This document shows positions 29,414 to 30,046 of a DNA stretch of 30,046 nucleotides, one piece after another (the first letter of the stretch is position 1; every line of letters begins with the position of its first letter). The stretch comes from a virus. The stretch spans positions 1-30,046 of the IMG/VR virus record IMGVR_UViG_3300025289_000094. One strand, 5' to 3'. Made by a program: the position numbers and the translations under genes. The notes beneath the pieces were generated by a model that was not told the origin of the DNA, ran no database searches, and saw nothing but the letters and a program-made list of their open reading frames with translations.

Positions 29414-29677
29414 TCACATCTGCTCCCAATAAGGCAGGTACTCGGTGTCGTAGGTGTCTTCGGGGACTGGATACCCTTTGAACTTGAGATACATTTCGTT
29501 GACTGACCTTTCCTGCTCATAGATCTTGCAGTACTCACAGATACTACTCACCGTGAACCAGCCAAACCCGTTGTTGTGGACCTGATAATCTTTCATTTTG
29601 TGCCCCAGGACGGGGATTTTGTCGAGCAGGAACGGGCCACGGTCAACACAAAAGAATTCAAGCCAAAGGTTGATCAT
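29414..29677 (-). CDS. Hypothetical protein, 87 aa
   Basis: A small protein with a Cys-x-x-Cys pair (ICEYCKIYEQE, about 46-56), many aromatics (NNGFGWFTVSS) and an acidic Tyr-rich end (EDTYDTEYLPYWEQM). I do not recognise it. Its ATG overlaps the stop of an upstream minus-strand frame (ATGA). The gene ends 11 bases before the operator/promoter of terS, so it is either a separate small transcript or the end of an operon cut by the right-hand junction. A CxxC zinc-binding role is possible but not shown. Confidence 0.55.
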   Translation of the reverse strand: MINLWLEFFCVDRGPFLLDKIPVLGHKMKDYQVHNNGFGWFTVSSICEYCKIYEQERSVNEMYLKFKGYPVPEDTYDTEYLPYWEQM

Positions 29678-29838
29678 CGTCCCACCAACGCCACCTGGGC
29701 ATACAGGCTCAGCACGCAGGCCATCAGCAGCAGGGTCAGCCCCAGCTGCAGGAAGGCTTTGAGGATGGCATGCCGGGTCCCGCTAGGAAGATCGCCCTTG
29801 TGCCGTGGGACCGCCACGACGCCGCGCCCGGTGACCAC
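29674..29838 (-). CDS. C-terminal part of a small membrane protein (start lost or unclear)
   Basis: The convincing part is the end: AILKAFLQLGLTLLLMACVL and SLYAQVALVGR, one membrane helix, coupled as ATGA to the next gene. Upstream the frame runs into the region that reads as a MerB-like gene on the opposite strand, and the only usual starts are GTG codons (29838, 29817) without ribosome sites. The N-terminus was probably lost at a junction near 29770-29790, or the gene simply starts at a weak GTG. No function is assigned. Confidence 0.35.
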   Translation of the reverse strand: MVTGRGVVAVPRHKGDLPSGTRHAILKAFLQLGLTLLLMACVLSLYAQVALVGR

Positions 29839-30046
29839 TTTGGCGTGCCGGCCGCCCAGTGGTGGGACAACATCGCGTTCACTTGATCGACGATGCTCAT
29901 CTTCCGGTCGGAAGAGCACATCGACCGCTGGTGCGCTTCTCGGGAGCTGACGCGCGGTGCCGCCATGTCCCCGGAGCAGTGCTGGCAACTTGCCCAAGCT
30001 TGGTACGCGAACGTTTTGCGCCCCGACTGGCGCAGAAAGACACTGG
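29770..30046 (+). pseudogene. MerB-like (alkylmercury lyase-type) C-terminal fragment with in-frame TGA; possible selenoprotein
   Basis: A plus-strand frame reads KIALVPWDRHDAAPGDHFGV, PAAQWWDNIAFT, then TGA (29884-29886), then STMLIFRSEEHIDRWCASRE and MSPEQCWQLAQAWYANVLRP to the window edge. The pattern 'AFTC.TM..FRSEEH...W' is one I know from MerB-like proteins, where the second active-site cysteine stands just before STM; here that codon is TGA. The N-terminal ~100+ residues expected of the family are absent upstream, so the gene appears truncated at about 29770-29790. Either it is a decaying fragment with a nonsense mutation, or the TGA encodes selenocysteine, as the hairpin after it allows. 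The family call is from memory of motifs. Confidence 0.45.
29891..29923 (+). promoter_or_regulatory. SECIS-like hairpin after the in-frame TGA
   Basis: TCTTCC (29900-29905) and GGAAGA (29910-29915) form a perfect 6-base stem with a GGTC loop. An outer stem CGATG/CATCG (29891-29895/29919-29923) is separated by a small internal loop. The first loop G is 20 bases after the TGA. Loop guanines, stem length and distance fit the bacterial SECIS pattern. Random GC-rich hairpins are common, so this is suggestive only. Confidence 0.4.

What the first reader, a model, noticed from the sequence alone, without database searches (positions are those of the whole stretch)
29770..30046. TGA at a conserved cysteine position in a MerB-like frame, followed by a SECIS-like hairpin
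Seen: the frame is open on both sides of TGA 29884-29886, and both sides read as one protein (WWDNIAFT | STMLIFRSEEHIDRWC). Known: MerB-type lyases use a cysteine at this place, bacterial selenocysteine often replaces catalytic Cys, and SECIS hairpins follow UGA directly with G in the apical loop. The stem TCTTCC/GGAAGA with GGTC loop starts 14 bases after the TGA. Inferred: a selenocysteine-containing organometal lyase relative. The counter-hypothesis is a nonsense mutation in a gene already truncated by the phage junction.
Basis: partly seen in the sequence, partly recalled or inferred. Interest (0 to 1): 0.68.

Follow-up and report, generated by a model that had tools for sequence, protein, structure and literature searches.

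The report
Selenocysteine MerB-like lyase fragment on phage
The odd stop codon at the end of this phage contig is almost certainly read as selenocysteine: about 60 bacterial relatives of the enzyme that breaks carbon-mercury bonds carry the same stop at the same catalytic position, followed by the same RNA signal, but the phage contig holds only a piece of the gene, joined on through a short shared sequence.

Summary
The TGA at 29884-29886 is real and sits at the catalytic Cys159 position of MerB-type organomercurial lyases. It is not a nonsense mutation. Surveys of about 400 genomes in each of three phyla (those of a Chloroflexota, an Actinomycetota and an Acidobacteriota MAG), with the loci found first, gave 61 MerB-like genes with TGA at exactly this codon, 19 with Cys and 1 with Trp. 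Nearly all TGA genes carry the same hairpin: about 7 bp, loop GGUC, 19 nt from the UGA. Synonymous codons in it are frozen (Arg CGG 57/58, Ser TCG 59/61), and five of seven pairs show compensatory changes. SelB is found in 53 of 56 TGA genomes and 6 of 12 Cys-only genomes.

The frame as drawn is not one native gene. Up to 29857 the DNA is phage (antisense of a HicA-like toxin gene); from 29842 on it is selenoprotein merB. Both genes are cut short and share an exact 16-nt word at the joint. An assembly chimera, or less likely a recombinant, is the best account.

Selenocysteine MerB-like proteins are already catalogued (MerB2, SaoL); this clade scores far below SaoL's cut-off. A sister class with TGA at both catalytic cysteine sites may be new.

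The parts
29674..29857 (-). Phage DNA: C-terminal part of a HicA-like toxin gene, its 5' end missing in the window; read in antisense it gives the false upstream half of the 'MerB' frame
   Evidence: Matches phage contig L002, where the intact product hits PF07927 HicA_toxin at 1.8e-6
29842..29857 (.). Junction: 16-nt word GGCGTGCCGGCCGCCC shared exactly by the phage gene (L002) and the merB gene (L034)
   Evidence: Exact shared runs of 18 nt with L002 (29840-29857) and 16 nt with L034 (29842-29857)
29842..30046 (+). 3' fragment of a selenocysteine MerB-like lyase gene, open to the contig end
   Evidence: About 80% nucleotide identity to the merB genes of L034 and L064 from here on, none before; Pfam MerB
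29884..29886 (+). TGA read as selenocysteine, equivalent to MerB Cys159
   Evidence: TGA at this column in 61 homologous genes, Cys in 19; PDB numbering
29899..29916 (+). SECIS-like hairpin: upper stem 29900-29905 with 29910-29915, apical loop GGTC 29906-29909
   Evidence: Conserved with compensatory changes in 59 sequences; fits the published bacterial SECIS model; fold of this window's RNA

Best explanation
The end of the contig carries the C-terminal fragment of a bacterial selenoprotein gene of the MerB (organomercurial lyase) family. In the source organism the UGA is decoded as selenocysteine: SelB with Sec-tRNA is recruited by the hairpin 13 nt downstream (GGUC loop). Sec replaces Cys159, one of the two metal-binding catalytic cysteines of MerB; the other, Cys96, and the proton donor Asp99 are conserved in the full-length relatives. 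The likely work is protonolysis of a carbon-metal bond: the Cys96 thiolate and Sec159 selenolate bind the metal and Asp99 protonates the leaving carbon; selenium would help by its low pKa and high affinity for mercury or a similar soft metal. Shown by computation: position, conservation, hairpin, machinery, MerB fold. Inferred: actual Sec insertion, substrate and catalysis. In this contig the fragment is joined within a 16-nt shared word to a phage hicA-like gene, most likely by an assembly error (about 3 in 4), otherwise by microhomology recombination. It is not a phage gene, and this copy could not make a whole lyase.
For: 61 MerB-like genes with TGA at the same codon against 19 Cys and 1 Trp. 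Frozen synonymous codons in the hairpin (Arg CGG 57/58, Ser TCG 59/61). Base pairing 93.5% with compensatory changes in 5 of 7 pairs, beyond 500 shuffles for the paired and covariation measures. Spacing, loop and energy fit the bacterial SECIS model. tRNA-Sec, SelA and SelB in the genomes; SelB in 53/56 TGA genomes vs 6/12 Cys-only genomes. Cys159, Cys96 and Asp99 by alignment to solved MerB; the model's best structural matches are MerB and MerB2. Junction word shared by phage and merB, both genes truncated. No other viral contig with the gene.
Against: No protein or reporter evidence of Sec insertion. The query profile was built largely from TGA-bearing genes, so the Sec:Cys ratio is biased towards the Sec clade. 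Three TGA genomes lack a SelB hit (G252, G661, G647; at least two look like small, partial genomes). Within the Chloroflexota sample SelB is common anyway (234/301). The excess of folding energy over synonymous shuffles is only slight. The source genome of the window's fragment was not found.
Confidence: 0.9

Rival explanations
1. The TGA is a nonsense mutation or sequencing error in a decaying merB fragment that the phage picked up.
For: The gene is truncated at the junction in this contig.
Against: The same TGA stands in about 60 distinct genes of three phyla that are otherwise open over the full length; the downstream RNA is conserved at synonymous sites.
Confidence: 0.03
2. The join is natural: the phage or prophage recombined by microhomology with a host selenoprotein merB, or picked up host DNA, so the contig is a true molecule.
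For: The 16-nt shared word is also what microhomology recombination uses; the window's phage part differs from L002 between about 29733 and 29857, which could reflect a real variant.
Against: The break lies inside two genes at once and within 190 nt of the contig end; no other viral contig has the join or the gene.
Confidence: 0.22
3. UGA is read as another amino acid in the source organism (reassigned code) rather than as Sec.
For: One homologue (L099) has TGG (Trp) at the site.
Against: UGA also ends several of these genes (in-frame TGA at +72 to +75 is the terminal stop); tRNA-Sec, SelA and SelB are present; the hairpin is specific to the TGA genes.
Confidence: 0.02

Closest known systems
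MerB organomercurial (alkylmercury) lyase, PF03243 / PRK13239 (PDB 3f2f, 3f0o); MerB2 (PDB 5c17)
   Same: Same fold and domain; Cys96, Asp99 and the 159 position conserved in full-length relatives
   Different: Sec instead of Cys at 159; about 22% identity over the fold; below the NCBIfam MerB cut-off (35-54 vs 193 bits); no mer operon neighbours seen
SaoL, MerB-like organometallic lyase of the SAO selenoprotein system (NF040728; listed in PMC13188914 with motif CU)
   Same: MerB-like selenoprotein; partial profile match; both are predicted to use Sec in the MerB fold
   Different: Scores 37-46 bits vs the cut-off of 140; the residue before U is mostly T or N, not C; no conserved neighbour genes
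'Organic mercuric lyase MerB2' / 'Alkylmercury lyase MerB-like' selenoprotein entries of published catalogues (PMC7435645, PMC9312934)
   Same: Predicted Sec MerB-like proteins; they may include this clade
   Different: Only the name and one example accession (given as SaoL in the later list) could be read; no sequences were available here to compare
Bacterial SECIS element (model in PMC13188914; E. coli fdhF type)
   Same: Apical loop starting with GG, upper stem, 16-37 nt spacing, energy below -7.5 kcal/mol
   Different: The lower stem is not conserved across the family; only about 7 bp are shared

Membership tests
Bacterial selenoprotein gene | In-frame UGA aligned to a conserved Cys of homologues | tested here: met
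   61 TGA, 19 Cys, 1 Trp at the column
Bacterial selenoprotein gene | bSECIS hairpin: loop 3-9 nt with G in the first two places, stem of at least 4 bp, 16-37 nt from the UGA, energy at most -7.5 kcal/mol | tested here: met
   Loop GGUC, 6-bp upper stem in the window, spacing 19 nt, -13.7 kcal/mol for 45 nt; conserved in the family
Bacterial selenoprotein gene | Host encodes SelA, SelB, tRNA-Sec | tested here: met
   Met in relatives' genomes; the window's own host is unknown
Bacterial selenoprotein gene | Sec shown in the protein | not testable with these tools
   Needs expression and mass spectrometry or 75Se
MerB (PF03243) | Pfam domain above gathering score | tested here: met
   Fragment 44.8 bits, full relatives 90-103 bits vs 27
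MerB (PF03243) | Catalytic Cys96, Asp99, Cys159 | tested here: met
   Cys96 and Asp99 present in full-length relatives, Sec in place of Cys159; the window fragment holds only the 159 site
MerB (PF03243) | Cleavage of organomercurials | not testable with these tools
   No assay; no mer genes recognised nearby
SaoL (NF040728) | NCBIfam equivalog cut-off of 140 bits | tested here: not met
   37-46 bits; 0 of 380 genomes of the G004 phylum over the cut-off
SaoL (NF040728) | CU motif at the Sec site (PMC13188914) | tested here: not met
   The residue before U is mostly T or N, never C in the genes listed
SaoL (NF040728) | Lies in the SAO gene cluster | tested here: inconclusive
   No conserved neighbours in 20 loci, but neighbours were not scanned against the Sao models one by one

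The most novel reading that the evidence does not exclude
A large family of stand-alone selenocysteine MerB-like lyases, separate from SaoL and the SAO cluster, is spread through uncultured lineages of three phyla. It includes a sister class in which both catalytic cysteines (96 and 159) are UGA-encoded, each with its own SECIS-like hairpin: a possible di-selenolate carbon-metal lyase.
Probability: 0.5. Interest if true: 0.68.

Novelty: new member of a known kind. Interest (0 to 1): 0.5.

Why it matters
Selenolates bind mercury far more strongly than thiols, so a lyase with Sec at the metal-binding site is directly testable for methylmercury breakdown, or for other organometal chemistry, in uncultured bacteria. 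Standard gene callers stop these genes at the UGA, so the potential for organomercurial breakdown may be undercounted. The case also warns that ends of viral contigs can carry host genes through short-word joins.

Tried and rejected
L003, the only other IMG/VR hit of the trimmed query, looks spurious: the ORFs there do not resemble MerB. A phage DNA search found no match in INPHARED. A conserved operon around the selenoprotein merB was sought in 20 loci; apart from merB pieces and their antisense ORFs only small, scattered clusters came up. Folding-energy excess over synonymous shuffles was a weak test. SaoL proper could not be fetched: no genome of the G004 phylum sample scored over cut-off, and the two Haft papers are not held. 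The families of G103 and G741 gave no closer copy of the window fragment, so its source organism stays unknown. A second in-frame TGA at +72 to +75 in several hits is just the terminal stop. L075 (TGA plus an upstream TAG, insertion in the hairpin) looks like a pseudogene or frame error and was left out of the RNA alignment.

Full report
What is there. The window is a 30,046-base virus record. Its right end holds a phage block on the minus strand (capsid, portal, TerL, TerS). Beyond it, at 29884-29886, lies a TGA in a + strand frame that is open on both sides. With Cys put at the TGA, the 92-residue peptide matches Pfam MerB at 1.5e-11.

Where the MerB part starts. A second phage contig, L002, is identical to the window up to about 29732, similar but diverged up to 29857, and unrelated after that. 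There both carry, on the minus strand, a gene whose intact L002 product matches HicA toxin (PF07927, 1.8e-6). The window lacks its N-terminal part. On the other side, the selenoprotein merB genes of L034 and L064 match the window from 29842 towards the contig end at about 80% nucleotide identity, and not before. The word GGCGTGCCGGCCGCCC (29842-29857) is exact in both L002 and L034. So the stretch up to about GDHF is phage antisense, and only GVPAAQWWDNIAFT-U-... is MerB. A joint inside a 16-nt shared word that cuts both genes is what a short-word assembly error gives; microhomology recombination would look the same. No other viral contig holding the gene was found, and the only other contig with the HicA-like gene continues without merB.

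Is the TGA selenocysteine? A profile made of the window fragment and two Cys-type plasmid MerBs brought seven genome loci. The four nearest, from an acidobacterial, a Gaiellaceae and two Chloroflexi MAGs, all have TGA at the very codon, in otherwise open frames of about 228 codons with a MerB-like N-terminal half. Surveys of about 400 genomes from each of the phyla of G004 (L009), G002 (L007) and G001 (L006), with the earlier loci and after removing duplicates, gave 61 genes with TGA there, 19 with TGC/TGT and one with TGG. Alignment to solved MerB puts the codon at Cys159, with Cys96 and Asp99 conserved upstream. An AlphaFold model of L009 (mean pLDDT 73) finds MerB and MerB2 crystal structures first.

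The hairpin. After the TGA comes CTCTTCC-GGTC-GGAAGAG or close variants. Among the TGA genes Arg is CGG in 57 of 58 and Ser is TCG in 59 of 61, though both have six codons; the Cys homologues keep neither. On 59 sequences 93.5% of cells pair, five of seven pairs have compensatory changes, none of 500 shuffles reaches the observed pairing or covariation, and slid versions pair 44-62%. L080 changes an inner C-G to U-A at the cost of Glu to Lys, L095 changes C-G to G-C at the cost of Glu to Gln, and L106 swaps outer pairs. Loop, stem, spacing (19 nt) and energy fit the published bacterial SECIS constraints (PMC13188914). The excess of folding energy over synonymous shuffles is only slight.

The machinery. 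tRNA-Sec, SelB and SelA occur in G001-G004, SelA of G003 being a contig-edge fragment. SelB occurs in 53 of 56 TGA genomes and 6 of 12 Cys-only genomes, Fisher p = 0.0005. In the G004 phylum sample at large it is 234 of 301, so within that phylum alone the association is not significant (17/18, p = 0.14). The window's own host is unknown.

History. On a quick maximum-likelihood tree of 75 proteins the Sec/Cys/Trp label needs five changes, against 17 when labels are shuffled. The window fragment groups with L034 and L064 (support 99). Sec looks old and stable in these lineages; the direction of change is not settled, since the root is arbitrary.

How it would work (from established MerB chemistry; inferred for this clade). 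Cys96 and residue 159 bind the metal and Asp99 protonates the leaving carbon. A selenolate at 159 is a stronger nucleophile and a stronger mercury ligand. Neighbour genes are not conserved, so mercury as the substrate is inferred from family alone.

What is known already. Sec-containing MerB-like proteins are in published catalogues: 'Organic mercuric lyase MerB2' (PMC7435645), 'Alkylmercury lyase MerB-like protein' (PMC9312934) and SaoL with a CU motif (PMC13188914). The clade here is far below SaoL's cut-off (37-46 vs 140 bits) and has mostly TU or NU. I therefore file it as a new member of a known kind; the older lists may already include parts of it.

A by-product. Six more distant homologues (L054, L059, L060, L082, L083, L084) have a second TGA at the Cys96 place (motif U-G-x-E/D), followed after 17 nt by a loop of the xGUxx kind on a GCUGGC/GCUGGC stem; a sister, L058, has TGC there. 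This looks like a double-Sec MerB-like class; in the two members tested no NCBIfam model reached its cut-off. It was not followed further.

Noticed in passing
L054, L059, L060, L082, L083, L084: TGA 65-68 codons before the main TGA: A diverged MerB-like class with TGA at both the Cys96 and the Cys159 place (UG-x-E/D ... U-x-x-M-x-LFRSEEH), each with its own SECIS-like hairpin: a possible double-selenocysteine lyase. Sister L058 has Cys at the first site.
   Followed up: partly
window 29674-29857 and L002 2896-3192: HicA-like toxin gene carried by this phage next to the terminase genes; intact in L002, 5'-truncated in the window. No HicB partner was looked for.
   Followed up: partly
L099 (G967): A MerB-like homologue with TGG (Trp) at the catalytic 159 codon, one base from TGA; its genome has SelB.
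   Followed up: no
L096 1939-1992: The hairpin keeps a 6-bp stem but the loop region is AGTTCC with Ser in place of Arg: a variant SECIS loop.
   Followed up: no
window 29733-29841 vs L002: After about 350 identical bases the two phage contigs diverge within the HicA-like gene, mostly at what look like silent sites of that gene, which hints at a second phage variant or recombination just before the joint.
   Followed up: no
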